Shown: one piece after another, positions 19,718-54,337 of the stretch | How positions within the stretch are numbered: the stretch's first letter is position 1 | Layout: the number at the start of each line of letters is the position of its first letter | Assembly (NCBI GenBank): GCA_950295325.1 | Contig: OX485808.1 | Location: 44,164,527-44,228,526 of the forward strand | Source of the DNA: Polytrichum commune | Taxonomy: Eukaryota > Streptophyta > Polytrichopsida > Polytrichales > Polytrichaceae | Direction: 5' to 3' | DNA length: 64,000 nt | Notes under the pieces: generated by a model | The model's database searches: none | Told to the model about the DNA's origin: nothing | The model's input: only the letters and a program-made list of their open reading frames with translations | Translations under genes and position numbers: made by a program

Positions 19718-19722
19718 CCAAG

Positions 19723-24070: not shown

Positions 24071-25237
24071 CTTTGAGACCTTCTCAAATTCAGGTGACTG
24101 CCAATATGTCTTCAACCTCTCCCATACACGGGGCTCTTCTCTAGGGGGGCACTCGCGGTCTGGGTTCGTGATGTACAATTTATGTAAGCGTGACCTTTCA
24201 GCTTTCATGCATTTGGAGACAACCTTCTTAAACCCGTAATCTGATATGGGGTGGCTGGTGAACTCAAATTCAGAATTGACTTCTTCACGCAAACTGGCAT
24301 AGTCAATGGGATCCTGTGCCATAACCTTGATGATGGATACATCAAGATATATTGTGCAAAGGGCCTTCAACACCTCTAAAAACCTTGATCCATGTCTACC
24401 AGTTTCATCTGGCTCCCTTACACTATTGCACTCAATCACATGAGGCTTGAGCCCCCTAGCCTTTCTGTCCGCCTCCTCGGCCTCGTACACATGTTGTGCA
24501 TCTCGTCGTTGCTTTCTCGCGGATGAATTGCTCTTTGCAGCCTCGAAGGTGTGCGAGCTCTCTTCTGGACGTGCGGAATCGCGCATTGTAGCCTTCTCCT
24601 GGTTGAGAGACTCGCTCCTGGGAGCATTTTGGGCAGAAGTGGCTGCAAGGGGGGTTGGGACCTGCACACTAGCGGCAGCCACCAACATTTGTCCTGGAGC
24701 AGCCATGGAGTATGACCCCACCAGATTGGGCGCCACAACCTGCAAGGGAGCAATGCCACCGCCACTGGGTTGGGAATTGGTATACCTAGGATTCGGTCTT
24801 TCGTAACCACAATGTTCACCTTCGTCGTAGAAACCCCTCCGTTGCAATGGCTGCACTTGATATCCATCGCGATCCATGTACACATTTTCTCTCATATTGT
24901 CAAAATCCATAGGGTGCCGTCTTCGCGGAGGACCGGGCCTCCCAGCAGGTGGCCTTGTAGGGTGCGATGGGTACCCACCTGATGGAATGCGCGCAGAGGA
25001 CTGCCCACCTCTCCAGCCCCCAGCACGATGAGCTGGATACCCAATACTATCATGCTCCCAATGTGCTGTATTCCAAGCCCCTTCTTGCCAGTTTTGCGAG
25101 CGGGCACCTACAACATACCCACCTTCGTCATACTCTTGACTCTCATCTTGGCTCCAAGGCACATGTGGTTGACTCGCTGGATAGGGTTGTGCCCGGGTTT
25201 GTTGATGCACATTGGGGATATATGATTGATCCCCCAT
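24071..25237 (-). CDS. En/Spm TnpA-like protein exon (Transposase_24-like)
   Basis: Minus-strand frame from ATG 25237 (MGDQSYIPNVHQQ). The N-terminal half is Gly/Pro/Arg/Gln-rich and disordered. The C-terminal half has RFLEVLKALCTIYLDVSI and, near the end, PRVWERLKTYWQSPEFEKVS, which fits the plant Ptta/En/Spm transposase family (Pfam Transposase_24: VW..L..YW.S.EF...S). A good donor (TCAAAG|GTAGGC) at 24070 ends the exon just where the family would continue into an NR-rich segment. A possible acceptor with an in-frame TAG lies near 25352, so an upstream extension is uncertain. Downstream exons are probably at 9998-9198 and 8781-8470, across the satellite-filled intron. In En/Spm elements this protein binds subterminal DNA. 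Confidence 0.6.
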
Positions 25238-25799
25238 ATTTGCATATGCCGGGTCCCCAATTGTCGCATCTGGTATGGACTCCCTGTAAGCAATTTGCCC
25301 CGTCGCTTGCCAGGGTGGACACGAAGGTGGTCCCTACGAGAGGTGGGGGTCTGGAGTCCATGTTTCCATACCATCTCCCTGTGCCTCGTGGGGCCGAGGC
25401 ACTCTCTCAGCCCGTGCATGTTCTCGGTGCACAATTTGAGCACCTGCCCCTGCCCCGGTCTCGTGTGCATGCAATACTTCCCCCCGTGAGCGTTTCTCCG
25501 GCGGTCCCTGCAAAAATGTTCAGGGCCAGCAATGTGCAAATTACATCGGAAGAGGATATTATCTCCTGCAATAAAACAACCCGCTAACACATGTACACAA
25601 CTCAACCCAAAATCACACGAATCCATCAGCCACATAAACTAAATGTGTGCATCAAAAGATGACACTAACTTGTGCAACATGTGCATGTACACAATTATGC
25701 TCGAACCCACACCAATTCAGAAGCCAACTAAACTAACTGTTTACATCAGAAAAACTATACCAACATATGCCCTAAACCACCCCTGCCCATACACGTAGA

Positions 25800-26283
25800 C
25801 CCAAACTAATTGGTTGCATAAGAAGCCTACACTCGCATATCCAAGGACCCAGCCTGCCCATTCATGTCCACAGTTATGCTCTGAGCCCACCCAATTCAGA
25901 ATCCACCTATACGAATTGGCTGCCTAGGAACACTACACTAACATATCTAAGAAGCCAACCTGCCCATACACATACACCATTATGCTCTACACCTACACAA
26001 TTCACAATTCACCTAAACTAACAAGCTGCCTAAGAAGCCTACACTCACATATCCAAGGACCCTGCCTGCCCATACACATACACAGTTCTCCTCTAAACCC
26101 ACCCAATTCAGAATTCACCTAAACTAACAAGCTGCCTAATAACACTACACTAACATATCTAAGAAGCCAACCTGCCCATACACATACACAGTTCTCCTCT
26201 AAACTTGCACAATTCAGAATTCAGCCAAACTAAGTGGCTGCATAAGAAGCCTAGACTCACATATCCAAGGACCCAGCCTGCCC

Positions 26284-26314
<31 letters not shown>

Positions 26315-32210: not shown

Positions 32211-35200
32211 TTAAACTGTAGCATGGGCTAAGATCCCCCTTTCAAGAATTGTTTTCACCTCCTTGAAACTGAGGGTAGGCGCATGCATGAAGAGGTCATG
32301 GTCGGCCTCTAGTTTGCAGACTTGTACGTAGAGATAGTAAAGATGCTTACAAGGTCGGAATGGACACCCGCGTCTACCCAGCTTAGCCATTGTCTCTTTG
32401 AACGCCGGGCAATTGCAGTCTGGGTAGGCACTGATTGAGAGATGGTAAACTGACTCCGTGGGAGCTGGTTTAGATTGCAAAGTTACAACGCATCCAAAAC
32501 CGGGTTGAGGTATCATTACTACCTTCAGAATACTTGCCTTCATTGCTCTAGCGGAATCAATGTTCTGCATGTGCTTCGAACTGGCACAAGTGATTGAGCG
32601 GCGCATGTTCTTTGACTTTCGTGTTTTTGGATAAACGTCCGCATTATCTGGCATTGGAACCTGTGACAGATCCGGTGGCGGTGCTACATTGTTGAACGTG
32701 CGGCTCATAGGAACGCTTTGCTTTTGGGGAAGTTGAAATCCCGCATTCTCCAACGCCTCAATCTCGGAACGTGTGAGATTGGTCCCTATCTTCACAGGCC
32801 AAACCGACGGGATGGGAGGTCGTTCCTCGTAATCCGAAAATGGCTCTATCCATCGTCGACGATGCCCCTTCACACACCTCTCAATATCGTCAGCACAGAA
32901 AAAAAACTGCTCCACCACCTTATGGTTACCTTTTTGAGGGTGGGTCCAAAGGCCAGTGTATGTGGGAGCTGGGGTGCTCTTCCCGTTTTGGACGATACGG
33001 GATGTACACTTTTTTCGAGTGACAGCCATCTGCGCCCAACAAGCCTTCGCAGAAACCTTATTAAGTCGGGCAATGTGCCATAGCTTCTCATTCACACGAG
33101 TCTCCTCCACGGCCGTCACCCGTCCAATATCTATGCCAGTTGAGGCAGGGGGCTGTGTTGGGCGTTCCACTTCCACTTGAACTTCCTCCTGGATGGTACT
33201 CAGATTTTGAGCACGAGCACGTGTCACCCTCCGACCCACTCGAGGACGTGAAAAATTAACAGTGTCTGGCCTATGAGTTTCTTCTTCGGCGCCAAGGGGA
33301 AGATCCGGCTTCCGTTTCCTTGACCCAAAAACCTCAGCTCCTTCGAGGTGTGCGTCTCGAGTACAGAAATCTTCGGCTCCGGGCATGTTCAAGACGGCTG
33401 CGTTCAGGGTAGTCGGATCCCCGGTTCGGTGAGCTCGGCGTTGGGCTGTCCGAAGTCGAAGTTCTTCTCTCGAGGGTCCAGAGCCTACCGCTCCACCTTT
33501 GAGGTATTGATAGTACCCCACCACTTGCAGGAATGCTCTAACGTAATCGTCGACGGCTGCTACGTAGAGATCGCCACCCCTATTGCCGGACACTTGCAAC
33601 CATTTGTTGTGAACGGTCTCAGCAAAGTTGCAAGAGGGCATTTCAGCTAGTTCATCCGGAGAAAGTTTCTTCTCCTGTACGAAGGCAACTGGTTAAGAAA
33701 TGTTCGGAAACTCAAGTGAGCAAGGAGGAGTCGTGGTGGGCCATGCCATTTAAAAGCAAAAGATTTAATATTGTTTAGATACTACATTAGACGCAGAGAA
33801 AAAAATGCAAACTTAAAGAATTGAATAATTTGAATGAAAGAGTGTATACTTACCAGTTCCATGAAACCACCCCACTGCCTGTATCAGAAATGCCAAAACG
33901 CAAGCCAATGGTTCAAATGGTGGAGGCATGCGTCAGAGGTGGCACCCGAAGATGTCCACCAGGCTTTGATTGCCAAATAACGTGTTTCAGCCTCTGCCAC
34001 AGACTGTGCATCTTTGTACTGCATACACAATTTCTTGTGTTGATCTTGCAATTCGTGCACGATGTATTGTTTGGTGTGTTTTTGTAGGGATTGCGCCCAA
34101 TGGAAATAACACGTTCGCTCGCGGCCTTCCATGGGTATCTTTGGGTCTCCGGATCCGTATATGATACGCACAGCGTTCCAATTGGCTAGAGCACTATCCG
34201 CCATGAAACCTTTGAACTGTGGCTTGTGTATTCCATGCCTACCCATGACGTGGTTAAGGTTCTTCCAGAACACGAGTTGAGCATCTTTGTCCTCAGACTG
34301 GAAATCACAACAAGCAATGGTGAGTACACGTTGGTAAGAGGAGTCATACACGTGGCAGGCCATGGTGGTCCAGTTGGCAACTCGTTTGACGTGGTCAAAC
34401 ATCATCCATGAGTGCTCTAAATCGCCGCTAGGTTGCATTCGGCGGACAAGGTCAACACCGCTGCCAGGTCCCACCTCGGACATCTTGAATATGAAGACCT
34501 TGTCGGAGTCGTCACCTTGGCCTGGAAACATGTTTCGTTGCACGTAGGCCCAGTTGCTAAGCCCTCTGAGCTTAGTGATGCCATCAAGAACGCCATATCT
34601 GCGTAGATACTTGAAACTGTAGACACGGTTTTTTAAGTTAGGGGAGTTGAGCTCCTTGCAGCATTGGAAGATAGGCTCTAGCTGTTCCAGAGAAAGTAAG
34701 GTGGGAGGGTCGTCTTCTTCGCGGAGCAAGACGTTACCTAAAACATCATTGCTAGTTTCCAAGACTATTTTGGAAATGGTAGCTTGCGGGTTGCGCTCAA
34801 CATGTTGTTCGATCAAATCGTCTATTATCTTCCGCGTGCCCCTATAGTCTCCTACCTTGACATGATGTTTATGGTTGCCTACATGGACGCAAGCACGCTC
34901 TTGCGTATCATCTCCAAAAACGTAGAAGATTTTTGCATCACAAGAGGCTACACAAAAAGGAGGTTCTTTACAGATCTTACAGACTATTGTTGAAGTTGGA
35001 GGTGGAGCGTCTGCAACAGGGAAGGCATCTTTGGAAGAACCTTCGAACTCGACCTCGTTCAATCCAGATGCGCGTTCAGGCCGCTGCAGAAACCCACATT
35101 TGGGATTGTGGCATTGAAGATGACCTACACAGTTAGACGACCGGAATGACAGCCCCAACGTGTTACTGATGTTAGTAGTCATAGTCTTTGTCCACATATG

Positions 35201-35965
35201 GCCATCGTAACGTTTGTCCATACCTTCCATACATTTAGCATTCTTCTGGACGGCAGATGGAAGGGTGGGAGGAAGAATGAAGATTATATCCCCATTGAAC
35301 GACGGTGGCAAGAAATCTACGTACTCAATACGGATGGAATCATAGTTCAGTTTTTTAAGGACTGACTTGCTTCCAGGCATACTACCCAGGGAACGAAGGG
35401 AGGGAAGAATGTTTATCAGTTTAGTAGTTTGCGAAGGTATAAGGAAAGGAGTAGTCCTACGTGAATCTTGAGAAGAGGAGGGAGATGGACGCTTAGCACT
35501 CGACCGGATTGATGGATGGGAAGGCCTCCCCTCATCATCAGAAGAATCGGACAAATCGATGCTAACGCGGAGACCTGGTTCGATCTTGACACGAGACAGT
35601 AAGGGGGCTTCAGTGCACAGTGTGGAGGAACTGCGAGGAGTGAGTAGGACTGTAGAAGCGTTCATGGACTCCGACAAGCCAAAGACGCGATACCTTCCGG
35701 GCTTGAGTTTCCAAACGCGAGCATTATTGTCTAACGTTACGGGCTGGACGTATAAGGAATAAAGGACATTTCGAGTTTCTGGATCGACAACATCTGTCTC
35801 TAACCACAAGCTATCAGCATCGAAACCATAACGAATGGATAGCCACTGGGGAGTGAGATCAGCGGTTCCATCAGGGCCAGTAGGTATGCATGTAGGGATA
35901 AGAGATCCAAGAGAAACAAATTCGATGGCATCGAAGAGTGGAGCTTGGACAGCAGCGGAAGACAT
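32211..35965 (-). pseudogene. MULE transposase with SWIM zinc finger (one in-frame UGA)
   Basis: Two exons. Exon 1 runs 35965-33854 from ATG (MSSAAVQAPLF); exon 2 runs 33674-32211 after a 179-bp intron (donor AACTG|GTAAGT, acceptor CGTACAG|GAGAAG, phase 0). Exon 1 has a disordered N-terminus, a Cys/His cluster (CHNPKCGF about residue 280; CKICKEPPFC and HVGNHKHH about 325-370) recalling the zinc modules of MULE proteins, then an MULE-type DDE core with MMFDHVKRVANW, GFMADSALANWNAV and CYFHWAQSL. Exon 2 ends with a SWIM finger (CNCPAF...RPCKHLYYLY). A TGA at 33886-33884 breaks the frame 10 codons before the splice site; the frame reads on as YRQWGGFMEL into exon 2. A TATATA lies 68 bp upstream of ATG. 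No other lesion is obvious. Confidence 0.8.
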
Positions 35966-36032
35966 TGAGAAACAATTTGACAAAGCTATGTGAATGCAAT
36001 TGCAAAAGGGAGATTGAAAAAACATAATGGGA

Positions 36033-36038
36033 TATATA
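36033..36038 (-). promoter_or_regulatory. Putative TATA box of MULE transposase
   Basis: TATATA within TGTATATATC on the minus strand, 68 bp upstream of ATG 35965 and downstream of the neighbouring small gene. The two genes may therefore have separate promoters. Confidence 0.4.
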
Positions 36039-36127
36039 CATGAGAGGTTGATGAAATCGTTGGACATCCCAGACATGTACAGGATGTAGTCAGAAAATGT
36101 TTGGTTAATTATGGGAAATATTAAGAA

Positions 36128-36565
36128 TCATGGAGTGCCAGACGAAAATGGGGCATTTTCCATATGGGGCCCTTTGCCATATTTCTCACCGTCATGTTTA
36201 TGACAATGGTCAATCCCTAAACTACGAACTGCAGTGCATCCTGCGCAATCGAGTTTGTGACCTTTGGCACTCCTTAATATGGATCTAGAGTAAGTGCCAG
36301 GTTTAATAACCCCAGCTCTAGAATAGGCATGAATCTTGAAAGTAGACTTGTTCTGTATTAGTGTTGCATCAACTGCCCGCAAAGATGGAGTCTGTGGTTT
36401 AGGAGTGTGAACGACGACCACCGGAGTAACTGAGCAATCAGGTGGGTTGGCAATCTTCATGTTGTTGACGTCTGCAGAACCATCGATGGACAACGTGGTG
36501 TGAAGTTGACATGAACTAGAAGCACCTAATGGAGCAAGGCTTGGGAGACGTGAGACAGTACCCAT
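36128..36565 (-). CDS. Small protein with endonuclease VII/HNH-like motif
   Basis: 145 codons from ATG 36565 (MGTVSRLPSL); a TATA-like ATATAATA lies about 52 bp upstream, which decides this start. The N-terminal two thirds are Ser/Thr/Pro-rich. The C-terminal part has LDCAGCTAVRSLGIDHCHKH: C-x2-C, then a hydrophobic-IDHCHKH block. This resembles the first half of the treble-clef/HNH motif of recombination endonuclease VII (C-x2-C...L-x-DHCH). The usual second C-x2-CN pair is not visible, so it may be truncated, divergent or a chance likeness. It sits 163 bp upstream of the MULE transposase on the same strand inside the giant element. Function unknown. Confidence 0.5.
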   Translation of the reverse strand: MGTVSRLPSLAPLGASSSCQLHTTLSIDGSADVNNMKIANPPDCSVTPVVVVHTPKPQTPSLRAVDATLIQNKSTFKIHAYSRAGVIKPGTYSRSILRSAKGHKLDCAGCTAVRSLGIDHCHKHDGEKYGKGPHMENAPFSSGTP

Positions 36566-36616
36566 TGGAGAAGAATATGATGAGATGACATGAAGGAAAG
36601 GGTACCAATAATTGGG

Positions 36617-36626
36617 TATTATATAC
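36617..36626 (-). promoter_or_regulatory. Putative TATA box of small gene
   Basis: GTATATAATA on the minus strand, about 52 bp upstream of ATG 36565. Confidence 0.4.
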
Positions 36627-37226
36627 ACCTTGGGTAGACACCAATACCCAAATATATGACAACCTCTTAGATCAATTAATAGTCAATATTTATTCATGTC
36701 AATTCTAGACAACCTGTTTCATGTAGGATTAGAATGTACTCCAGTAATAGTCATTATTTTTTGACCACCAAATATGATACATGTCAGTATAGACTAATTT
36801 TCCTATGCACTAAAAAATAACTCATTCTTGATAACCTAATATATGCTATGCCGAAATGATGAAGTTAAACCCTAAAGGTGTATGTACATTTTATGGAAAA
36901 ATAATAAATTTGAAAATTTGTGGAGGCCGTCATTGTCAGGAGAGATGCGTAAATATATCGACAAATTCGAAATAGATTAGTAACTGATGTTAGTGTTGTC
37001 AGTGATCTAATCTCGGATACCGCGTTTTATTAAACGTGGGAATATAATTCGATGACATAGCTTGATAGAAATTAAATACAAAGGAAAGGGATACAGAGGA
37101 CTAGCTTGGGAGACATGAATGTACGATTAGTTCCGGGAGGAGCATCTCGTGAGAGTAGCTAGTGTGCATGAGAGTTTGTGTAGGAGCAGAGAAGTTCGGG
37201 CATTGGTGGGGCATCGAGACGCACAC

Positions 37227-40200
37227 ATGAAGGAAACAGGGCACACAACAGTCTCTTTAGCGGAGCCGTCACGGAAGCCTAGGAAGAGGAGGGGCAGGAC
37301 GAACTTCAGCAACTCGAAGCAGAAGAGGCGCGCTGCGAGGGATCTGAAGAAGAAGGACACCCCGAGCATTGAGGGTCGTGGAACTCCATCGAACTTGAGC
37401 GACGAAGCGGAAGAGGATCAGGGAGGAACTTGGAGAGGGAGATGTAAAATACGGTCGTTACACCTAGAGTCGATAGCAGAAGCTGAGGACGCGGGCAAGA
37501 TTCACGGGACCTCAGTTGCAACAGCGATGGACGAGAGCGAACAAGAGAAGGAATCGAGTAGCAGAGCGAGTGATGCTAGTAAGATGGATTCACCTCAGCA
37601 GACAAGTGATCCTCCCGCGGACGATGTAAGTGTTTTCCTTGGAGGCTTAAGCTTCTGTTGAAACCCTAATCATTGCAATAGTTTGAACTAACGCGAGATA
37701 TGTTTGTGATTCATTAGCGAGAAGATAGCCCTGATAGAGGGCATATCTATAGGGACACGGATGATATAGAATTTCCAGATCACGAAGTGATAGCTTTAGA
37801 GGGAGAAGAGAAGCGCGCAAACTGTATTACACCGGCTATGCGGGGAGGCGCGGGACATCTGATGGAAGCAAGAGCGCCAAACAAAGAGGCCTCGAGGGAG
37901 CAACCGAAAAAGGCTCGATCGGAGACACTCGATGATTCATAAGTAAGGCAATCATTCCATTTGCATCTAGACTTCTCATTGCTGACTGAACATGAAACTG
38001 CATTCAGCTAAATTCCCCAGCTTTTGATAGAGGTGAGAAATTCACCAATCCCACAGATCCGTGGGATTGGAGAATGTATTTCTTGTTGGGAACAACAATT
38101 TACTCCCCATTCGTCACATTAAATTTTGCCTACCACATCAAGCAACGATACCGACATTCATCAATCCCACGGATCCGTGGGATTGATGCATGCGCATACA
38201 TTTTTACATCGGAGCTAACATTCACCAATCCCAAGGATCCGTGGGATTGATGCATGTGCATACATTTTTACATCGGAGCTAACATTCACCAATTCCATAG
38301 ATCCGTGGGATTGGCAAGTGTTTACGCAGTTGAGCAACGATGCCGACATTCATCAATCCCACGGATCCTTGGGATTGGCAAGTGTTTACGCAGTTGAGCA
38401 ACGATGCCAACATGCATCAATCCTACAGATCCGTGGGATTAATGCATGTGCATACATTTTTACATCGGAGCTAATATTCATCAATCCCAAGGATCCGTGG
38501 GATTGGCAAGTGTTTACGCTGTTGAGCAACGATGCCGACATGCATCAATCCCACGGATCCGTGGGATTGACAAGTGTTTACGCAGTTGAGCAACGATGCC
38601 GACATGCATCAATCCCACAGATCCGTGGGATTAATGCATGTGCATACATTTTTACATCGGAGCTAACATTCATCAATCCCACGGATCCGTGGAATTGGCA
38701 AGTGTTTACGCTGTTGAGCAACGATGCCGACATGCATCAATCCCACGGATCCGTGGGATTAATGCATGTGCATACATTTTTACATCGGAGCTAACATTCA
38801 TCAATCCCACGGATCCGTGGGATTGATACATGTGCATATATTTTTACATCGGAGCTAACATTCATCAATCCCACGGATCCGTGGGATTGATACATGTGCA
38901 TACATTTTTACATCGGAGCTAACATTCATCAATCCCACGGATCTGTGGGATTGAATAGTATGCACATTGTCATGCAACAAGACAAACATTAATCACACGG
39001 ATCCGTGGGATAGGAGAATGTCTACACTCATGGGCAGCGGGGCCCACGTCTTGCAATCCCACGGATCCGTGGAATTGATGAATGTGCATAAAATCTCACA
39101 GAAGAGGCTATAGTCTTCAATCTTACATGACATTTTTCATGAATTTTTCCTATTTTTTTCATGATAAGTCAGTAAACTTTATGAATTACGAGAATCTATA
39201 CACCATTTTCTTGAAAATAATCTAGTCTGTTTGGAACTACACTAAATAGGTTGATTAGTGTTGGATGGAGATTAGTGTTAGAGCCAATAGTTACCCAAAA
39301 CACTAAATGTTACTTGAAATTACAATTAGTGTTAGAATTTCCTTTGTCTTTATTTTGCATTATCTGAGTTGGGTTCCATTAAGTTTAAATTTTTGTAATA
39401 TCAAATTCCTAACATATTACATTTTATATGAGGCTCACATATCCTACCTCCAATTCTTCATTTGAAGATCTACAAAAAAATCATCTAACACTAAATGCGC
39501 TTATGTAAATATTCAAAGTTACTAATTGGTACAAATAGTGTTGGAGTTGACATTTGATGTTCTAACACTATGAAGACAATTGACATTTAGCGTTTTCGTC
39601 GACTATTAGTGTTTCCAACACTAATCAACATATTTAGTGAAGTCCGCCGACTGGAAGGAAGGGGAATCTTTTGAGCTGCCCGAGGGTGAGAGGCGGGCAG
39701 CGGAAAAATAGGAGGCCTTGAGGGGGGTCTGGGGAGAGCTGGGGCTTCTCTTTCATTTCTCTCTCTCTCCCCCTCAGGCTGGCTGAGAAACTCTGAGGGC
39801 TAAGCCTTGCCGGTTTTGGAAGCCGGGAAGAGGGTGCAGTCACGGGATGTGAGAGGAAGGTCTGCGGGCAAGGGGGCACCAAGAGCAGTGCTGCTAGCTG
39901 CGAAGATGGGGAGTGGAGAATGAGAGGACTGTCGAATCCACAACGCTGCACAGAAAAGTTCGAGAGGAGCAAGAGGGCTTCTCAAGATAGATAGATAGAT
40001 AGATAGATCAGGGGAGAGAGTCATCACACATGAGCTTCATGGTGAAGTAGCCTGCCTCCACTCAAATCACTTCACATGCTTTCCATTTCGCCTTCCTGCT
40101 ATATTTTGGATTTTTGCATTTCGCTACAACCAGGAACCTCATCTCTAATTTACCAGGACCCATCTGTTGAGTTGGTGCAGCCCTGAGCTGAATCATCTTC

Positions 40201-43200
40201 TTCCCGCACTCATCAACATCAGTTGGGCATGCATGCACTGATCAAATTAGGTTTTAGTGGTGTTGGGTCCGTGCGACTTAATAGATGCAAAAATGAATTA
40301 GGTGTTTTAGCAGACGGAGTGTGCGAGCTGAATCCCTCCTCTAAGGTGCTCCAAGTTATTGGCCAACGCTCAGGGTTACATACGGCCATATGCTTAGCCT
40401 GAAGCAATGTGAAGAATCATGCTTCAGATTGGCAGACATTGCTACCCTTACATGCTACAAAAAAATCATCTAACACTAAATGCGCTTATGTAAATATTCA
40501 AAGTTATTAATTGGTACAAATAGTGTTAGAGTGACATTTGATGTTCTAACACTATGAAGACAATTGACATTTAGCGTTTTCGTCGACTATTAGTGTTTCC
40601 AACACTAATCAACATATTTAGTCAGTCCATTAAGGCCGGGCTGCCTTTGGGTTAGGGAAAGGCTAGGATCTCAGATTTGACAGATGTTCTACAACTATCA
40701 TTCTGGATGAGGGCGAAGAGTCAAAAGCATAGATGGTTGGACATACGAAAGGTCATCTCTATAGGAGTAGCTTGCGTATGGATTCATTATTCCAGTATGA
40801 AACTTGTTTATATCCTTGTGAGGTTTCAGAACCTTTGTAGCCAGTTCCAAATAAACTCTGCTTTTGCAATTGATGCGAAATATGGCCTCCATGCCTAGCT
40901 ATGGTGGTGTAATGATTCTTGTGACTCATTTGAACTCTCCACATGCAGATTGCAATGATATGAATGACCACACTGGGGTTGTTGAAAGGACGAGTCCATG
41001 ATCATCCATAGTAGATTGGGAAAGGATGATAAATTTAATGAGGACTTTGTTTATCATATCTTGTCATCCAATCATAAAATTTTGGGGTTTCTTTATCGGT
41101 TTTGATTAAAATTATTGTTATCAATTAGGTAAGGTCAGAAGGAATTACTAAATGCCAGTTCGAATTTTACTTGTAATGTGGGAGCAAGCAGGAGGCGAAT
41201 TCATGAGGTGGCGTCAACAGGCGAAGAGTCGCAGAGGATGCACAGACTACAATGTCAGAGCAATAACCAATCAGCCAGGCGTCAACAGATTTCAAGGTGA
41301 TTTTAGTTACCCTATCTGAGTAGATAAGGACTGCTGCTTATGGCTATGGTTTATCATCTTAGATCTTCACAAAGAGTACACAGGCGCTGGTTGTAATAGA
41401 TGTACTTCATAACAGAAATAACTTATATACTATTCAGGTTGCAATACTCTCTCTAGTTTTCTGTGGAAGGAAGGTACATAAACCTTGGTAAGGTATTAAT
41501 TTCATGTAAGTACCTGACATAGGTTGTGTGCCATGTAGACATATATACTTCTTTCCCCCAGATAATGTCAGTTAGCGCTTTCTGTGAGTACAGGCCTTTA
41601 TCTACATTGCTTCTTTCTCTCGATTCTGTGATCTGAAAGACCGTCCTCGCGAAGTTGATCGATAGGGGAATGCACAGGTTTCTGATATGCGGTGGAGCGG
41701 TTGTTGGATTAGGTTCCTCGTGGTTCAATCTTGTGAATTGGCTCAAATTGGTGATGTCTTGGACTAATCCGGCTGCTGCTTGAATGACTACAGAGCTTGC
41801 TGGAAGAAGGTGAGGAGATGACTGTTGTTGGGCACGTCAAGGAGAAGAAATTCCTTCGTCTCAGGCGCTCCTTGTGAGGGCCACAGGGAAATTGCCTAGT
41901 ATTATTCTAGTAATTAGGATAAGTGGTGCAAGGCTGCAGCTGCATGAAGCTTAATTCCAGTAGAATGTTACTTTAGAGATGCACATGATCATGTTTGGCT
42001 ACCTGTAGAAGGGATTGTTGTCACAGTGGTATTAAAGGTGGGGATGCAAAAAGCAAACTCTATGTATGAGCAAAGCATTTGTAAATGCTCTTGAGAAAGT
42101 GAAAATCAATAAAGAAAAGGTGTTTTACACACCACTTGTGATCAAGTCAGCTGAGAAATGGAGGTAAGGGGTGACCAATTGAAGTTTAGTTGGTGAGGGA
42201 GGACGCCCCCCACCCAGCAGATTTTCACTCGTCAGGCACCTCGGTTGCGGCTTCGTGGACAATTTGCTCCAATCCCACGGATCCGTGGGATTAAGAGATA
42301 TGGTCAAATTTTCACAATTTCTTTGCTGCTTCATCTCATTAGTCTTTCATTTTGTTAATGCCATTTGTTTCTCTCTATGTAGGAGTTGGAGGGAATAGAT
42401 CTCTCCGATGATCTTGTGGTCTTGGAGCCCTCTGTGGAGGAGGAGCAAGCGGAGGATGCTGTGGACTTGAACAACGTCGAAGAGCTAGAGGATATTGAGG
42501 AGGTCGTTCCAGAACAACTCGAGCAAGTTGACCGGGTGAACACCGACGTGCAGGAGGTAGTTGATTTAGACACTTATGTCTTCCGTTCTTGCACCTGCAC
42601 TCCTTTAGAGTCGGTGGTTGAGTTATTCTCGTGTGTACTAAATTGAATCGGATGTTTGTAGACTCCCTCTAGACTTCCCGAGGAACCTCCCGAGTCAGCT
42701 AACCCCGAGGAAAGTGAGGTCAATCTTCGAGCGAAGCAGAAACAAGATTCGACAGCAGTCATCAATCGCCTCCGCATTCGGCCTCTTGAGAAGTCTCGAC
42801 TTTGCATCCCCCTCTGCCGCTTGCGGGATTTGCCACTCGTTCGGCCCATCAACGAGTTGGATGTCCAGAGGTTGGAGAACGAATTCGTTACGGGGTACCG
42901 AGATGGTGACCGTGTTCTCTATGTTTCCATCTACAACAACAAGGACGACATCTTGGAGGTCACGGAGGACATCTCGTCCACCTGGAGTCCGTTGTGGAAG
43001 CTTGAGAGTGAAAGATTCGATGCACGGATGGCCGCCGACCCCGATCTTGTCCACTTTGTGGGCAAGATGTTCTACGTGTGGGAGGGGAACCACCGGTTGA
43101 CCGCTTGGTGGCGCCACGTGAACAGGTTCCATCCTACGGAAGAGGAGTGGCATATCTCTCCCTATTGTATTGCCTTGGATTCGCGGAAGCATAGTGGCGT

Positions 43201-46200
43201 TCTCATGAATGCCATGAACGACGTGAATTGGTATGTCTCTCTCTATTCTTTGCTACTTCATTCTTTGTTTGTGAGTGTCTTCTCATCTTGTCTTCTTCAA
43301 TTTTTTGTAGGTCTATCGAGAACAACCACGTCAAGTCCAGCCTCCCTGTCGCGCACCTCTCCATGAGGAGTGCCCGAAACACCATGGGCACAAGGGGGAC
43401 CCCGGAGTGACACCCGGGACTTGTGGCGCCGTTGGTGAGAGGGCCCAAGTGATCCTAGTGTGGGTGAGGGCCCCGGGCGTTGGGAACGCCTCCCACCCAC
43501 GAAGACTAGGAGGCACAAGGGCAAGGCCATGAGCTATGCGTAGCTCATGGCGTGGTGATTCTAGAATGCTCAAGAACACCTCAATCGGAGGTGTGAGCTA
43601 GGAGTTATGGCCATTTGAGTGGGGCGCTGTCCCGGGACAGCGCCCTGGTACAGCAGTGCCTGGGAGGGATTCCCGGGACTGCCAAGGTTCAAACAGGCAT
43701 AACTTCCTCAAGACTTGCTCGAATGGAGCAAGTGAGGAGTCCATCGGCATCTACGTGAAGCGTAGATGAGGATGGAGTGGTTGGTGGTTATGATCAGACA
43801 TCATACAAGGAAGTTATGATGGTCTGAAGCTGCTGGGGGGTTCTAGGCCCAGCAGCTAAAGGAAAATGTCCACTTGGCCCCAACTCTTGGTAGAGAGACA
43901 AGAGGTTGGTTGACGGTGGGGTAGGGGCCCCGCGTGAAGTCCTAGAGGCTTATATGGGTGAGGTGGTGTGGCCTCACCCACCCGAGGCCGAACGGCAAGG
44001 CCTCCATGGGCTTTGGCCTATTGTGAGGCCATAGTTGCCTAGTATGGTTCGGGTTGTTGTAGTGTTGCTCCGGCAATGCGATGATCAACATAGGATTGGA
44101 CTTCCATGAATGGAAGTCCACATTGGGGAAATGGGTTACCGATTAAGGGGTGAGTCCCGAAAGCAAAGTAGGAGGGTTGGTTCCCTCCTATGAACTATTG
44201 GTCCGGGGTAAGAGGAGCTATCCATTAGCATGGCGGAATGCGAAGGGTTAGCGACTCGTAACCTTTGCTAGAATTGAAAATTGGCAAGATTATTAAGGGA
44301 CCTAGCAAGGGTTGCGACACTCCCCTCCAAGCTTCACCGCATCCGCTACTTTGGGACCTTGGAGTTTGAGGACTTCAAGGACCTCATTTCCAAGGAGGAT
44401 TACTTGGCTTGTATCAATGCCAAGAGGAAGCACAACACTTGGTACCCCTTGACCATCGACGTCTTCGTCTCCTTTCTCTACAAGGTAATCACTTCCCCAC
44501 ACTTTGATTTCTCTCCTTTCAATTTCCATCTTCTTCGTTGGCTTACCTTTGCTTGCAACCAGAGAGAGATCTCCGCCGCCTCCGACGCTGCAGCTAGAGC
44601 TTACAAGGATGAAACTCCGGCCGATCAGAGGACCGCTCTCGGTGTTTGGAGGGCCATGACACTTGCTGAGGAGAAGGCCAGAAAGTCCATTCTCTCCAAG
44701 AGCTTCGAGAAGTATGTGGCCGTTGCCAACTCCGAGAATACCGACGCCTTCTTTGATGAGGTGCTCCTCTTCATCTTCTTTTCTCCTTTGATTTGTCCTT
44801 CATGATTTCTTCTCGATTTTGCTAACTCACCTCCAATTTCCTCATCTAGATCAATCGGCACTTCTCGGTGAACACGGTCCCGGACATGACCATCGAGAAG
44901 CTTTCTAAGGTGGCCAACACTCATGTCCCGTGTCATTTCAAGGCGAAATGGCTCCGTTGGTGGAATTCCACCATGACTATCCGAACCGGCAACAAATTCC
45001 CTTCCATTGTGCCCCTTAAGGAGAGGGTCCTCGAATCCTGGCTTCATAAGGCCTCTTTCTGGGCTCAGGTGAATCTCTCCCCTCCTTTGGATTGATTGTT
45101 TTCTCTACGGTTGTCTATCCTCATTTCTTGTTTTTCATTCTATGACTACAGTTGGAGGACAGGGTTGATTTGGAGTTCAAGTCCTTAGAGGCTAGCCTTG
45201 GTCGCGCCATCAATTGGGATGTGCAAGGGGGTGTGTTACGTCCACCAAAGTTCGTGGATGGATGGAGGATCCTTCTCTGGGACCACGCCTTCCCGCATTA
45301 CTTTGAGGAGAAGTCAAACACGAAGTTCCTCAAGGGCACGAACCTCACTGAGATTGAAGATGGTATCAAGATCATTCACCGTGTCCTTCATAGGTATTTC
45401 TTCCTCCTCTCCACTTGTCCTTCATTTTCTTTGCAACACTCGAACTTCTCTCATTTTTTTCCATGTCTTTTGCTTTAGGTACATCTATCACGAGCTTATT
45501 CCGAAAGAAGCTCTTTCTGCCTCCTTTCTACCGGTCTATGTCGAGGAGTGGGTTCTGGACTCCTCCCCGAATTTCATGTACACTGACGAGCACGATGTTT
45601 ACCCATTTGCTCACCTCAAGCATGCAGGGTGGTATTTGGACTGTTCGAAGGGGTTCGTTCCTCCCTCGGAGGTTCATTTGTTCACCTCTTTGAATGCTGA
45701 GGCACCCGCTGATGTTGTCTTTCACGAGCCCGTGGTCCCCGAGGAGTCGGTGAAGGGTACGAAGGCATCGAAGGTTGTTAAGGAAATCAAAAGCAAGAAG
45801 GTGAAGGCGGTCTCGGGTACTCAAGCTTCCCAAGCCACTGTGTCTACTCGTTCTACTACGAAGGCCGCCGCCGAAGCTTCCGCTGCACCTGCTGCCACCT
45901 TTGTAGGTAGCCCATCCCTCCCTCTTGCCTTGCATGCCCCCGCTTCTTCTCACAGCACAGCCACTGCCCCCTCTTTGACTCGCAAGAGGAAGGCATTCGC
46001 AGCAGCAACGAGTGCTACATCCTCTGAGACTGCTTCTACCTACAGTCTCATTGAGAATGTAGACATCGGAGTGCTCATGGACCACTACACGAAGACCAAC
46101 TCCCATCAAGCGGCCTACCTTCGCATCGAAGAATTCCTTGTCAAGGTAGGAGTCCACTTCTTTTTTCATTCTTGCATTCATTTCTATCTTGTGAAGCATT

Positions 46201-47530
46201 CCTCTTCTCTTCTCAACCTTCTTCTTTGCTCTACAGGTTGGTGTCGGTCGGACTCGCCTTAACAGGAATCCCAAGTCCCATACCGGTATCGACCTTCTCT
46301 TTGTCGATGTACCGGACAATCTCCCGGTGCCCGCCATCTCGACTTCGCCATCCGACATTCCAGCGTGGAACCGCCGGGGTCCGAGTTTCTTTGATGATGT
46401 CTTTACTTTCGCAGAGGACAACCTCCATGACAACGGTGTCCTCGTCATCATGCACCCCGATGCCCCCAAGATGCACGACGACATTCGCGATTGGGCCTTG
46501 GAATGTCACTTTACTATCGCCAGGGACTGGTGGGGCGTGAATGATCTTCACCTTACGTCCGCACAAGATCCCAAGATGTTTGTAAGTATTTCTTCTCCTC
46601 CTCTTCATTTACTTCAAGTTGTACATTTTTCTTTTTGTCACTAACTATGCAATTTTCTTTGTAGACAAAACGCTTCTTCATCAAGGTTCTTGTGCCCCTC
46701 GGCTCCACTCTCTCCGTTTACGAGGCGGAGGACTATTCGAAGTTGGGCTTCTCATTGGAGAAGGATTCCCTTCTCCACAATTTCACGAATGAGGAGAGCC
46801 AGCTCATGAAGGATGGCAAGGTGCCATGGAGAGGGGCTCGAGAGAAGAGCATGGAATTCTTAAGCATTGTTATCCAGACGCTCACGAGGAAGCACGACAT
46901 TGTCATGGATTGGCAATGTGGCACAGGTTTCTCTTTGCCCTCCTATACTTTGTTTTTGAGTTTCATTTCTTGCTTTTGCATTTTTAATTTTTTTCTCTAC
47001 CTCACTCAATTTCTTTTCATTTAGGTGCATCCATCACTGCGTGTCGTATGGCTGAGCGCCACATTGTGGCGCTCGAGCGAGACTCGGAGATCTTCGAGGC
47101 TGTCCTGCTGCCTATGCGGGACTCTGTACCTCCGGCCGAACCCGTTGTCGCACATCCGGACCCCTCTTCTACTGAACCTCGGCAAAAGCTCCTGAGGCGT
47201 CACAGAAAGTGTGCGTAAGTCTGATTTCTAACTTAGCACCTCTTTCATTGGTTTTTTTTTCATTTCTTTTCTTGCTTTAGCTTATGCATTCTAGTATGTT
47301 GCTTTGTGTGTAGAGTTCCACGGGAGAGCCCTATCCGTGTCCTCAACCCGGACATGTTTCGAAGCCCTCCGCGGGCGTTCGAACTACCTTCGTATGCTGG
47401 TGGGCTTGCCCATCAGTTCGCGGTCGCACCATCTCCACCTATTACTCGCGCTCGTCCTGTTGATAGGCGTGTGTTGGAATATTTAGATGTAGAGGCCAGG
47501 CAGGGAATGGAAAGTGATAGAGATGACTAG
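37227..47530 (+). CDS. ParB-like / beta-class DNA amino-methyltransferase-like fusion gene
   Basis: Exons: 37227-37625, 37718-37942, 42383-42556, 42662-43230, 43311-44484 (with a 915-bp insertion), 44563-44760, 44850-45068, 45152-45393, 45479-46145, 46237-46581, 46665-46926, 47025-47214 and 47314-47530; all junctions are GT-AG and phases agree. The N-terminus is basic (KPRKRRGRTNF), then acidic. Exon 4 has GKMFYVWEGNHRLTAWW, like the G-(N/x)-x-R core of ParB/sulfiredoxin folds. Exons 46237-47214 carry methyltransferase motifs in permuted order: IDLLFVDVPDNLP (motif IV position), then REKSMEFLSIVI and MDWQCGTGASITACRM (motif I, DxxxGTG) with HIVALERDSEIF. TAA ends exon 2 right at its donor; exons 1-2 may be a separate 207-residue product. 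Probably decayed in this copy. Confidence 0.65.
38047..39076. repeat. Array of 22-bp palindromes at 64-bp spacing
   Basis: Sixteen copies of a 22-bp perfect or near-perfect palindrome: AATCCCACGGA followed by its reverse complement, with GGATCC at the centre. Starts are 38047, 38163, 38227, 38291, 38355, 38419, 38483, 38547, 38611, 38675, 38739, 38803, 38867, 38931, 38991 and 39055: thirteen intervals of exactly 64 bp, one of 60 and one of 116. The 42-bp spacers are of two kinds (TGCATACATTTTTACATCGG and GTTTACGCAGTTGAGCAACG). The array begins 105 bp after the donor of exon 2 of the cargo gene. Confidence 0.95.
39241..39638. mobile_element. MITE-like element, 398 bp
   Basis: Terminal inverted repeats of 24 bp (ACTAAATAGGTTGATTAG... 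and ...CTAATCAACATATTTAGT, 23 of 24 matching). Interior AT-rich with repeated TTAGTGTT. It is inside the large intron of the cargo gene. The ends resemble the MITE at 3758-3964. Confidence 0.65.
39985..40008. repeat. (AGAT)6 microsatellite
   Basis: Six perfect AGAT units. Confidence 0.9.
40455..40622. repeat. Partial second copy of the 398-bp MITE
   Basis: About 168 bp nearly identical to 39470-39638 (from CTACAAAAAAATCATC to ATATTTAGT), in the same orientation 985 bp downstream. The left half of the element is missing. Confidence 0.85.
40623..42270. other. Intron sequence, no gene recognised
   Basis: Remainder of the long intron between cargo-gene exons 2 and 3. No transposon termini or coding frame were identified. 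Together with 39077-40622 it separates the palindrome array from its lone downstream copy. Confidence 0.5.
42271..42292. repeat. Lone copy of the 22-bp palindrome
   Basis: A perfect copy of the array palindrome, 90 bp upstream of the acceptor of exon 3 (42383) and about 3.2 kb from the end of the array. Confidence 0.95.
43397..44311. mobile_element. ~0.9-kb insertion in cargo-gene exon 5 (LTR-like)
   Basis: CAAGGG occurs at 43391-43396 and 44306-44311, flanking about 910 bp of GC-rich non-coding sequence. Removing 915 bp (a multiple of three) joins ...RNTMGTR to VATLPSKLHR... in frame, in the middle of an otherwise open exon. The insert includes TGACACCCGGG near its left end and GCGACA at its right, and a TATAT-containing block, recalling a Ty3-type solo LTR, but the ends at the duplication are not TG...CA. 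The family is undetermined. The insert introduces a TGA at 43408. Confidence 0.55.
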
Positions 47531-49336: not shown

Positions 49337-50432
49337 TGCCGACTCTAGAGTCCATCCATCGAACTATGCTGAAGCCAGATCCCCTTTTCAAAATGGGTTG
49401 ACAGTCCATTAGCAAACCAGCGAGCGCAGCGAAACTAGCCATACCCAACACACCCACTCCTAACGCAGGAGACCTAAACCAACAACGCGGCCTAGCACAT
49501 GGTTGAGGTGGGTAACACTCTCACTGTGCACTGGTGACTGTTACTGGCATGTGCAACCCTATGGGTAGACGTCCGCTACCCATGGGTTCCAGCACGACAG
49601 GCCTCCTGCAATGCGAGAAAAAAGTGGGGAGACGGCATGTCAAATAGCAATCATTGTCCAAATACAAATACACCCTAATGAATGTGAGAACATGAAAATG
49701 AGCTCAGATTTGTGACAAACCAATGTCACGACCATACTTGGACTACCTGGCCTATTTGCATAAGATGTGGACTTCATCATTGATTGCATAAGTGTGTTTG
49801 AAGTGGTTAGTGTTGACGACCATGTGCATATTTAGATGTTTTGGGTGTAGGCTCTCCCCACCAATCTGCCCATCAATTAACTTGCCACAATCCCCATATG
49901 GGCATTAATTCAAGAACATTGGAGCCACCAACAGGCTTCATGTAATTGCTATACATGCAGAATGAGGTTGAATTCTGTTTTGGAAATCTTCTGTGAAGTT
50001 TATGATGTTCAACGATAGGACTCATCATGTACATGGAGTTGCCACAATTGGTGTTAATGTGTTCACGTTCGGAGCTTAACCGTGAGGCCCAACAACCAAA
50101 TACAAGCATATTGAAACCTATATAAAATGCATGATTTCATTTGAAAATGCCAACGTACGTAGATGTTGTGAACAAGGATATTCGCGCCACATGCCCCTAC
50201 CACTTCACACATGCCAAAGGATGGGGCTAGTGTAAACTGCATTTGGTTATTCACATCTAGCAACACGCAACCAGAAGGCATTATTTGCAGATACCGCGTG
50301 TATAGCAAGAACTCAATAGATGTCCAGAGGTGAATTGTAATTGGGCTATACTGTCTAATACAACATGCATCAGATTGCAGAGGCATCCAGTAGACACGTA
50401 CCACAACCCTCTGCACGGAGCTGGAGACCAAT

Positions 50433-53400
50433 ATGGGGGACCCAACAGCCCGACCACACCTGAGGGATCCCATACGGATAGCAATGCGGGATGAAAAGTT
50501 GTGGCGACGAGAGGCGGCAATGTATGCAGCCCACCGCATAAAATTGGTGCCTTGCCCTTGCAAAGTTTGCAAAGGGAGCAAGAAACACATGGCAACAAAC
50601 AAAGTAGAAAGCCACCTTATGACAAATGGGAGACACCACTCATTTAGAAAATGGAGAGGCCCTGGTCCACGGGACGACTCCGACAATGAATGGGATAACC
50701 ATATTCGCGGAGGCGGAGCTCTGCCTCCACCACTCCCAATAGATGAAAATGTTGGATTGCAAAAGCTGTTTCATAATGTGAATGTTGTCCATGCAAATGT
50801 TGTTCCCCCACCCCAAGAACCTAATGCTCCACCTCCAACAGAACAAGATAACCTCCCAGATATGATGGCAAACTGTGAAGACCCTGGGTTCGCTAACCAT
50901 GTAATGGATGTTGTGCAGCAAGCTCAGACTATGGTAGAGGATGTGCAGGCATAACCAGACTCCATAGCAGAGCACGACAATGTGGTTGCAGATAATGATG
51001 GAAATGAACCCCTCTCTGCACCTGGCACACCCGAAATGGCGGACGAAGGGACGGGCCCAGGAGACATACCAATGGATGCAGTGGAGGATTTAAATCTAAC
51101 GGAGGTGCTGTTGTCGTGCCACCCTTTGTTCCCGGGTGCATCTGTAACGAAGCTTGCTGCCACCATGCTCATCATGACAATATGCACAATTCATGGTGTA
51201 AACAACAAATTTGTGGATGAATTACTATATCTTTTGAGCAAGTACATTCTGCCCCATCCGAATTCGTTGCCTTTGAACATGTACCATGCTAGAGTGCTTG
51301 TGGAGAAGGTCAGTCTAGCTATGAGAGCATACACGCATGCAAAAATGGATGTGTGTTGTTCCAAGGGGATGCATACAATGATTTAACAGAATGTCCAGTG
51401 TGTAATGCAAATCGATTCAAAGCATGTGGAAGGTCACAAGTGCCGGTGAGCGTTCTGAGACACTTCCCTCTGATACCCCGACTAGTCAGATGGTACAAGT
51501 CACCGAGAATAGCAAAAATGTTGAGGTGGGCTCACCTGAACAAATCCAGCGATGGCAAAATGCACGGTGTCCACGACTCCCCAGCGTGGCGTGCAATCGA
51601 TACAAAGTTTCCTTCCTTTGCTAGAGGTTTCCGGAACATCCGCATGGCATTGTCAGCAGATGGTTTCAACCCATTTTCATCCCTTCTATGCCAATGGTCC
51701 ACTTGGCCTGTATTTGTATTCATATACAATTTGCCTCCTTGGATGACCACAAAACGTTTTTTTGTCATCCCTGTCTTACTCATTCCGGGAAAACATTCAC
51801 CCAATGGAGGTAACATTGATGTGTACATGAAACCTGTTATAGATCAATTGAAACAACTTTGGTGGCCTGGTGTGTGGGCAGACGACCACAGCATATCCCC
51901 AGAACTTACGCGCAGGTTTAGACTCCGAGGATGTTTGATGTGGACAATCAATGATTGGCCAGGCTATGGCCTCCTATCTGGTATGGCGCATGCCGGCTAC
52001 GCTGGCTGCCCCCCCTGCGGGCCAGAGGTGACCTCAAGATACTCGAGGGAGTTGCATAAGTGTTTGTACACTGGCTCACGACGCTGGTTGCGATCAAGGC
52101 AACACCCTTACAGAAGACCAAACTACAGTGCAGCGTTTGGAAACGAAACAGAATCGCGGGCGCAGCCCAAAAGGCCAACAACGACAGAGATACTGGAAAG
52201 GGCAGAAGAGTGTAAGAAATGGCTAGAGTCTGGCAATGTGGCGGGAGGAGAGCTTGATCCCTCGAGGTGGCACGGTGTGAAGAGAAGATCGTGTTTCTTT
52301 GACTTACCCTATTTCAAGGTAAGTCCACTGCACACTACGTAAGCATCAGATTCCAGGGTGAACTAACAGGGGCTGCACATTAAGAGAGGTTGTGAAAAAA
52401 TAGCATAGAGTTCATATTAACTTGCGACAGGATGTATGTGCAGCATTTTCTTGTGCGGCATTGCACAGACGTTATGCACGTCGAGAAGAATGTTTGCGAA
52501 AATGTGGTGAAGACAATCCTCGGAGAGAAAGACACAATTGCATGCAGACGAGATATGGAGGCAACAGGAGTCCGCGAAGAACTATGGCTGGTTAAGACGA
52601 CCAATGCCCGAGGGAAGACGAAGGTTATAAAGCCTGCCGCACCGTACGTACTGAATGATGTGGACCTCCCCATCTTCATGTCCAGACTAGCAGCCCTTCA
52701 GGTGCCTTCAGGATATTGCGGTGCCGTTGCAAAGCATATAACACTCAGGAAGCTGAGCGGGATGAAGGCGCATGACTGGCACGTTGTCATGCAACAGTTA
52801 CTGCCATTGTGCACAAGGGGTCTCCTGGACCGCGGGCCTCGCACAGCAATCATGAGACTGTCGCGCGTTTTTAGAAGAATTTGCGCTAAAGTCATAGACC
52901 CCACCGACATGGTCAACCTCAAAGAGGACGTTGCTGTTACAATGTCAATGCTCGAGATTCACATGCCTCCGAGTTTTTTCGACGTGATGTCACACCTGGT
53001 GATACACCTCGTGGAGGAGCTAGAGCTGTGTGGGCCCGTACACACACGCTGGATGTACAGTGTTGAGCGAATGAACAAGGTTTTAAAAAGGTACGTCAAC
53101 AATATGGCCAGGCCAGAGGCATGCATGGCAAAATCGCATGTGCTGGAAGAGGCAATTGGACTGGTGGCCGAGTTTATGACTGACTATGAGCCACTACATC
53201 GCAATGTGTGGACAGAGGAGGCTAGCGCAGGGATTACCGGGGAGGTTCTGGAAGGAGCTGGAACCACATCTGTTATCACACCCTATATGAGAGACATTGC
53301 ACACGAGTACCTGCTTCTAAATCGCACATCATTCCAGCCACTGTGCAGGTATGAGAGAAACATAATCCTAAACTCCATTACCGGTTCATCTAAAAGAATG

Positions 53401-54337
53401 CACTAGAAGTGGTAATGTCAGACGGGAACGAAGGCAACATTGATGGCAGATTTTTTGCCCACTGCCAGTATGTCTTGCACATATTTTTGTTGTGATGTAA
53501 GCTTCAATTGCCATATTGTAGTCCTGCAACAGAGAATATGTTGTAGCCCGCGCAGAGTTCGAGGGTGCAGTTCCCCTGGATACACCCCTTGGTGCGTTTC
53601 CTAGTCTGGCCGTGTGGATAAGAGAGGTTGTGCGGAAGCTAGCAGGTCGGGAAGAAGGTCTGGGAGATGCAGACATGAGAAAACTATCAGTGCCCCCTAA
53701 GCTGGTGTCAAAATTGTACTCAAGGATGCAGGCGTACGGTAACCATTACCGCTGCGATGATGGATCATCAGCTGGAATGGTAAGCTATGCCTGTGGTGTG
53801 GCGTCAATCTTGAAAACGCAAGGTTCTACAATAGGAGGTGTGATGGGCCAAATACACTACGTAGGTGTTTTGAAACACATTCGAGTTATGGACTATGGGA
53901 AAGTTATCACACCTATTACCTTAATGGAATGCGATTGGGTTCGCCATGGTGTGGACGAAATGGGAGAGCCCACGTACAAAAGAGATGAATTTGGTTTCCT
54001 CTTGGCCAACTTTTCATGCGTGCTGGAGCATCCAGATGACCCATTTGTATTGCCGTCCCAGGTCCAGCAGGTTTTCTACGCCGATGCAGAGAGCAGTGGA
54101 CCCTGGCGTGTTGTACTAAACAGCGAGGCAAGGTCCAGGAGGTCTCTAGCGTCCGACTACGAGGAGTTTATAAATACTCGAGTGTGTGTTCCAACACTAG
54201 AGGCCGAAACCTTGCTGGCCCCCACATCCCACATTCCGAACATGGTGGGTGGTATAACATTGTCTGAAAGAGACGCAGAGCTCGCATTAGCACCTTTGCT
54301 GAGGGGAGAATTTGGCAACATATCCGATGAGGACTGA
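50433..54337 (+). pseudogene. CACTA (En/Spm) TNP2-type transposase, broken
   Basis: Parts in order: a transposase-associated N-terminal domain (50433-50954) with CPCKVC, VESHLMTNG and RKWRG; a linker; the TNP2 catalytic region (51340-52318) with LTECPVC, VLRHFPLIPRL, DGFNPFSS, IPVLLIPGKHSPNG and TINDWPGYGLLSG; after a ~113-bp intron, HCTDVMHVEKNVCENVV and a DUF4218-like domain (52432-53406) with MPPSFFDVMSHLVIHLVEE; and a DUF4216-like domain (53522-54337, after acceptor ATTGTAG) with VGVLKHIRVMDYG and VFYADAESSGPWRVV. Lesions: TAA at 50952, a 1-base loss in the A-run at 51341-51345 that separates ...AYTHA from KNGCVLFQGD, and an apparent phase mismatch at the 52318/52431 splice. It would cut and paste CACTA elements if intact. 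Confidence 0.85.

What the first reader, a model, noticed from the sequence alone, without database searches (positions are those of the whole stretch)
42662..47530. ParB-like domain fused to a permuted DNA amino-methyltransferase in a plant mobile element
Phase-consistent exons encode a GNHR-type ParB/sulfiredoxin-like segment followed by a domain with motif IV position before motif I (DWQCGTGASITACRM), the order of beta-class N4/N6 methyltransferases. Prokaryotic mobile elements and phages carry ParB-methyltransferase combinations. N4-cytosine methylation by a related class of enzyme has been reported in Marchantia sperm. A version spread as MULE cargo could link DNA modification to transposon control. 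The link to activity is inference.
Basis: partly seen in the sequence, partly recalled or inferred. Interest (0 to 1): 0.88.

Follow-up and report, generated by a model that had tools for sequence, protein, structure and literature searches.

The report
Plant mobile ParB–methyltransferase-like fusion gene
A repeated, probably mobile plant gene family joins a bacterial-type ParB nucleotide-switch domain to a DNA-methyltransferase-like domain whose catalytic motif looks changed; the copy in this window is itself interrupted by an inserted sequence.

Summary
Exons at 42158-47530 (+) splice to a 1,094-aa protein if a 973-bp solo-LTR-like insert in exon 3 (43347-44319) is left out.

The N-terminal domain has the ParB/sulfiredoxin fold: AlphaFold with 121 sequences gave pLDDT 92; 29 of 31 listed structural matches are named as that superfamily, the other two are hypothetical proteins. 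The C-terminal domain is beta-class amino-methyltransferase-like over motif I. Motif IV reads DVPD, not DPPY, and DVPK in the only relative covering it, so catalysis is doubtful.

The family is large: 203 exon-2 homologues, one from the moss Ceratodon. A rearranged copy, P0133, supports mobility. "MULE cargo" is not supported: no element ends were found, and a CACTA transposase lies nearby.

ParB-methyltransferase proteins in algal DNA transposons are already in print (PMC12477816), so this is a variant of a known kind. Seventeen copies of a 24-bp palindrome, 16 upstream and one in intron 1, give a testable target-site idea.

The parts
42158..42163 (+). proposed first coding exon (ATG GAG), followed by donor GTAAGG; in-frame TGA just upstream
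   Evidence: sequence read directly, phase-0 join to next exon; inference, no transcript data
42270..42293 (.). 24-bp palindrome (1 mismatch to CAATCCCACGGATCCGTGGGATTG) in proposed intron 1, 89 bp before the next exon
   Evidence: the peptide read through it is the same in the rearranged copy P0133
42383..42556 (+). exon: acidic N-terminal region
   Evidence: open, GT-AG, phase 0
42662..43230 (+). exon with the ParB/sulfiredoxin-fold domain (GNHR at residues 202-205 of the spliced protein); 42743-43230 was folded
43311..43346 (+). exon 3, 5' part, ending with CTCCC (43342-43346)
43347..44319 (.). 973-bp solo-LTR-like insert (TGTCGC...GCGACA between two CTCCC) that interrupts exon 3
   Evidence: reading on from exon 3, a stop follows after 20 residues
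44325..44484 (+). exon 3, 3' part (44320-44324 is the second CTCCC)
44563..44760 (+). exon: middle region, no known domain
   Evidence: no Pfam match and no PHROG match
44850..45068 (+). exon: middle region
45152..45393 (+). exon: middle region
45479..46145 (+). exon: end of middle region, Lys/Ala/Ser-rich hinge and start of the C-terminal domain
46237..46581 (+). exon with degenerate motif IV (DVPDN) of the methyltransferase-like domain
   Evidence: P0121 is 52.5% identical over 46231-46584 and reads DVPKN
46665..46926 (+). exon with GAREK (in place of HPTQKP) and the start of motif I (DWQCGT)
   Evidence: P0123-P0126 at 89-96% identity over 41-47% of the query; alignment to phage MTases
47025..47214 (+). 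exon completing motif I and what follows it (GASITACRMAERHIVALERDSEIFE)
   Evidence: profile matches
47314..47530 (+). last exon, TAG stop at 47528-47530
38046..39077 (.). array of 16 copies of the same 24-bp palindrome, mostly 64 bp apart; that it belongs to the element is not shown
   Evidence: 17 matches in the window including 42270, 0 in 100 shuffles; tandem repeat

Best explanation
The gene is a member of a large, repeated, probably transposon-borne plant family. Its product is an accessory protein of about 1,100 aa: an acidic N-terminus, a ParB-type nucleotide-binding domain (fold shown by prediction), a middle region of about 500 residues of unknown fold, and a C-terminal beta-class amino-methyltransferase-like domain (shown by profiles over motif I). 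Inferred working: the ParB domain loads on or recognises DNA under control of an NTP, and the SAM-binding domain marks or shields the element's own DNA. Because motif IV reads DVPx rather than DPPY, this branch more probably acts as a SAM- and DNA-binding pseudo-enzyme, or with an active partner, than as a stand-alone methylase. The window copy is interrupted by a solo-LTR-like insert and is probably not functional.
Confidence: 0.65

Rival explanations
1. The encoded enzyme is catalytically active and deposits N4-methylcytosine or N6-methyladenine on its own element; DVPx is a working variant of motif IV.
For: Motif I is largely kept among relatives; one phage methylase in the same alignment has DIPYNL where the window has DVPDNL; the brown-algal protein was predicted to be an N4/N6 methyltransferase (PMC12477816).
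Against: The aromatic residue of motif IV, which stacks on the target base (recalled), is D in the window and K in P0121, the only 2 sequences that cover it; 2 of the 10 sequences aligned have Ser or Ala for the first Gly of motif I.
Confidence: 0.2
2. ParB-type nickase plus SAM-binding domain: the protein nicks DNA at or near the element and helps transposition or replication.
For: PMC5512222 (passages seen) reports nonspecific nicking by the ParB domain of Bacillus cereus Bce_0392, which is fused to an adenine methylase; the GNHR arginine is kept in 107 of 121; that it equals the pocket arginine named there is my inference.
Against: Nuclease activity of a ParB domain cannot be read from sequence; canonical ParB uses this fold as a CTP switch (PMC12704722, passages seen).
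Confidence: 0.2
3. A domesticated or ordinary host gene family, not a transposon gene.
For: Strong conservation (median pairwise identity 0.59 among 121); member counts may be the same locus in many samples, so copies per genome are not shown by them.
Against: Many diverged clusters (203), near-identical partial copies P0123-P0126, the rearranged copy P0133, a window copy broken by an insert; two pairs of clusters (P0033/P0035 and P0024/P0119) list the same longest-contig length, which suggests two copies on one contig (inference).
Confidence: 0.08
4. MULE cargo.
For: Opposite-strand ORFs at 32211-36682 hold a CxC...CxH stretch that looks like a SWIM finger (read by eye).
Against: No Pfam match at E 1 in the two larger ORFs and only a sub-threshold Endonuclease_7 match (E 0.095) in the third; none at E 10 in two pieces; no convincing TIR/TSD pair; an EnSpm/CACTA transposase downstream is an equal candidate.
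Confidence: 0.1

Closest known systems
Sola1-1_Ec32 accessory protein of Ectocarpus, with similar proteins cited for green and red algal transposons (PMC12477816, passages seen; the two works it cites were not held)
   Same: One polypeptide of about 1,100 aa (1,104 there, 1,094 here) with a ParB-like and an N4/N6-methyltransferase-like domain, tied to mobile DNA.
   Different: Here: a family with a moss member, an interrupted copy, a degenerate motif IV, carrier transposon not identified. The algal sequence could not be compared, so its motif IV is unknown to me.
Phage ParB-CTPase fold fused to N6_N4 methyltransferase PF01555 (PMC12704722, passages seen)
   Same: Same two kinds of domain joined; mobile setting; the ParB fold can bind CTP, ATP or GTP.
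   Different: Prokaryotic. The window's ParB domain found only 3 weak phage matches by tblastn (E about 1).
[quoted passage not shown]
   Same: ParB domain fused to an adenine methylase.
   Different: Bacterial; reported to nick DNA; not compared by sequence.
Marchantia sperm N4-cytosine methyltransferase (PMC8885841, passage seen)
   Same: Plant methyltransferase of bacterial origin.
   Different: Said to lack additional N- or C-terminal domains and to act genome-wide; no sequence comparison done.

Membership tests
ParB-CTPase/sulfiredoxin fold | ParB/Srx fold | tested here: met
ParB-CTPase/sulfiredoxin fold | conserved P-motif arginine | tested here: met
   GNHR in the window and in 102 of 121; R in 107 of 121. 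PMC12704722 (passage): changing the P-motif R to A abolished nucleotide binding; that GNHR is that motif is inferred
ParB partition protein (ParABS) | HTH DNA-binding domain | tested here: inconclusive
   no Pfam or PHROG match in the middle region
ParB partition protein (ParABS) | ParA partner | not tested
   not looked for
ParB-CTPase/sulfiredoxin fold | NTP binding | not testable with these tools
   needs biochemistry
beta-class N4/N6 amino-methyltransferase (PF01555) | SAM motif I placed after motif IV | tested here: met
   motif I matches; DVPDN at 781, DWQCGTG at 954
beta-class N4/N6 amino-methyltransferase (PF01555) | motif IV [DNS]PP[YFW] | tested here: not met
   DVPD in the window, DVPK in P0121: 2 of 2 that cover it; placement of the motif is of low confidence
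beta-class N4/N6 amino-methyltransferase (PF01555) | Pfam gathering score | tested here: not met
   18.7 and 21.6 against 26.7 bits
beta-class N4/N6 amino-methyltransferase (PF01555) | DNA methylation activity | not testable with these tools
   needs assay or modification-aware reads
transposon-borne ParB-MTase accessory proteins (as in Ectocarpus) | both domains in one protein of about 1,100 aa | tested here: met
   spliced model of 1,094 aa with the insert left out; MTase domain only as methyltransferase-like
transposon-borne ParB-MTase accessory proteins (as in Ectocarpus) | lies between the ends of a DNA transposon | tested here: inconclusive
   no convincing ends; rearranged copy P0133
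transposon-borne ParB-MTase accessory proteins (as in Ectocarpus) | sequence kinship with the algal proteins | not tested
MULE cargo | inverted ends with 8-11 bp target duplication around the gene | tested here: inconclusive
   9 candidate pairs against 4, 0 and 1 in three shuffles; 7 share the start 4899 and end in the 106-bp satellite, 1 is the palindrome itself, the best (13 of 16) equals the best shuffled pair
MULE cargo | MULE transposase nearby | tested here: inconclusive
   suspected ORFs have no Pfam transposase match

The most novel reading that the evidence does not exclude
A plant transposon carries its own ParB-like DNA clamp fused to a SAM-binding domain, and the 24-bp palindrome (16 in an array at 38046-39077, one in the proposed first intron at 42270) is its parS-like landing site, so that the element tags or shelters its own copies from host silencing without the plant 5-methylcytosine machinery.
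Probability: 0.1. Interest if true: 0.85.

Novelty: new variant of a known kind. Interest (0 to 1): 0.55.

Why it matters
Public sequence data hold about two hundred exon-sized relatives of this gene, almost all unnamed, so plants appear to host a big family of mobile ParB-methyltransferase-like proteins of a sort reported for algae. If such proteins act on their own elements, they are a second, bacterial-type layer of DNA marking in plants. The change in motif IV offers a sharp test: active enzyme, or pseudo-enzyme that binds DNA and SAM.

Tried and rejected
Chance or mis-joined exons: rejected for exon 2 and the MTase exons, where relatives match; for the middle exons only frame and splice phase speak. 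A second copy of the gene's exons in the window: none in a self-comparison at E 1e-8 that left out satellite-against-satellite pairs. Sequence-only proof of ParB: Pfam (1 member, 32), NCBIfam, PHROGs and a PDB profile search all failed; phmmer against PDB gave unrelated chains. A first fold from a single sequence was useless (pLDDT 32). Relatives in viral contigs: no pattern match for the MTase; 66 stretches matched a ParB pattern, none confirmed; the palindrome, 0. Bacterial/archaeal genomes: 385 stretches matched a pattern, none confirmed. The full-length protein search gave nothing among 7995 scored candidates; its query carried 14 residues that I later recognised as read from the insert. 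Ends of the element: the scan covered elements of 3-40 kb with duplications of 8-10 bp, or 3 bp with CACT ends; 4-5 bp duplications (Sola and others) were not tested there. One search showed an inverted pair 41970/47640 (15 of 18 bases) close around the gene, but 7 more rows scored 15 and none of the 8 had a duplication longer than 2 bp, so I do not use it. That the insert is a long intron was rejected for want of good splice signals (by eye); 7 pairs with TG..CA ends and 5-bp duplications occur in the window in all, so the solo-LTR reading rests on position and on the open frame across the empty site, not on homology. The window's organism was not identified; that it is a plant or streptophyte alga is inference.
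Full report
What is in the sequence. On the + strand, GT-AG exons run from 42383, and probably from 42158, to a TAG at 47528-47530. The start at 42158 is inferred: an ATG two codons before a perfect donor (GAG|GTAAGG), an in-frame TGA just upstream, and a phase-0 join to the exon at 42383. Exon 3 is interrupted between 43347 and 44319 by 973 bp that begin TGTCGC, end GCGACA and are flanked by CTCCC on both sides, as a solo LTR would be. Across the empty site the frame is open and the product is 1,094 aa; as the sequence stands, reading on from exon 3 meets a stop after 20 residues of the insert. Seven pairs with TG..CA ends and 5-bp duplications occur in the 64-kb window, so the signature alone is no proof. 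The window copy is probably not functional. The middle exons (44325-46145) rest on frame and splice phase alone.

Methyltransferase-like domain. The spliced C-terminal 270 residues match Pfam N6_N4_Mtase (E 2.3e-4; 21.6 bits, below the 26.7 cut-off), CcrM of NCBIfam (E 1.1e-4, far below its cut-off), DpnA in the PDB (E 0.0016), PHROG methyltransferases (best E 5.4e-6) and phage methylases by tblastn (E down to 1e-5; 250 records at E <= 10, most of them weak). Against a profile of 8 methyltransferases, 8 of the 20 listed hits, it scores 31.2 bits; of 1000 shuffles 198 were reported, the best at 3.1. As the 8 were picked from the domain's own hits, this is support for the alignment rather than an independent test. 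hhalign of the window with nine relatives against them gives probability 93 and E 4.1e-7 for one comparison. The profile matches are confined to the motif I region. MAFFT and a forced global hhalign alignment, of low confidence there, put DVPDNL of the window on DPPY; one phage sequence reads DIPYNL. P0121, the only relative that covers the motif, reads DVPKNL. The aromatic residue of motif IV is thus missing in 2 of 2. In motif I, 2 of the 10 sequences aligned (P0122, P0127) have Ser or Ala for the first Gly. The exon ends inside motif I, so the last residue read in several relatives is not reliable.

Mobility and neighbours. Thirteen relatives of the MTase exons were found among 46 candidates; P0123-P0126 are 89-96% identical over 41-47% of the query. 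P0133 joins sequence like 42207-42428, before the ParB exon, to sequence like 46827-47172: a rearranged or internally deleted copy, unless it is an assembly error. With the family's size this points to a mobile element, though copies per genome cannot be read. Its ends were not found: a scan for inverted ends with 8-10 bp duplications, or CACT ends with 3 bp, gave 9 pairs in the window, 7 of them from one start (4899) into the 106-bp satellite, against 4, 0 and 1 in three shuffles; the best (13 of 16) equals the best shuffled pair. A CACTA transposase (Transposase_21, E 1.1e-61) lies on the gene's own strand at 50394-54337. Which element carries the gene is open.

A palindrome. CAATCCCACGGATCCGTGGGATTG occurs 17 times with up to 3 mismatches, none in 100 shuffles: 16 times at 38046-39077, mostly 64 bp apart, and once at 42270-42293, in the proposed first intron. 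The peptide read through the single copy is the same in P0133, so that copy of the palindrome belongs to the repeated unit. A landing site for the ParB domain or for a transposase is possible; nothing here tests it. For the array, an ordinary satellite is the duller reading.

Known before. PMC12477816 (passages seen) describes a 1,104-aa protein with a ParB-like domain and a methyltransferase domain predicted to make N4-methylcytosine or N6-methyladenine, in the Ectocarpus Sola1-1 transposon and on the strand opposite to the transposase; [quoted passage not shown] The two works it cites were not held. PMC12704722 (passages) finds the ParB fold often fused to N6_N4 methyltransferases in phages and shows that it can bind various NTPs. 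PMC5512222 (passages) reports nicking by a bacterial ParB-methylase. [quoted passage not shown] Searches of the held library for a plant member listed none: ParB with Chara braunii (0 papers), mosses and ferns (20 of 885 listed, ParB in none of the 20), algae (4 of 4, 1 of 1), bryophytes (10 of 376 listed), and the broader (20 of 59; 10 of 43). Most subscription papers are not in that library.

Verdict. The architecture is not new; a large plant family of it, a window copy broken by an insert and a changed catalytic motif are what this adds. I rate it a new variant of a known kind.

Noticed in passing
38046-39077 and 42270-42293: 17 copies of a 24-bp palindrome with a GGATCC centre, 16 of them in an array of about 64-bp period.
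   Followed up: partly
12392-17796: Copia-type LTR retrotransposon with one long ORF (1,334 aa, stop to stop) and 199-bp terminal repeats 99.5% identical, so probably a young insertion.
   Followed up: partly
50394-54337: EnSpm/CACTA transposase ORFs on the + strand (Transpos_assoc, Transposase_21, DUF4218, DUF4216).
   Followed up: partly
32211-36682: Opposite-strand ORFs with a SWIM-like CxC...CxH stretch, suspected MULE transposase, without a Pfam transposase match.
   Followed up: partly
37131-37944: Reading frame of two exons on the + strand (exon 2 read by eye), charged, of unknown kind, between the suspected transposase and the palindrome array; no Pfam match for the first exon.
   Followed up: no
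39470-39638 and 40455-40622: Direct repeats of 169 bp, 98% identical, possibly a short LTR-type element.
   Followed up: no
10243-29215: Large arrays of a 106-bp satellite.
   Followed up: no
719-3370: Long ORF with DUF2921 domains; that this is an ordinary plant gene family is recalled.
   Followed up: no
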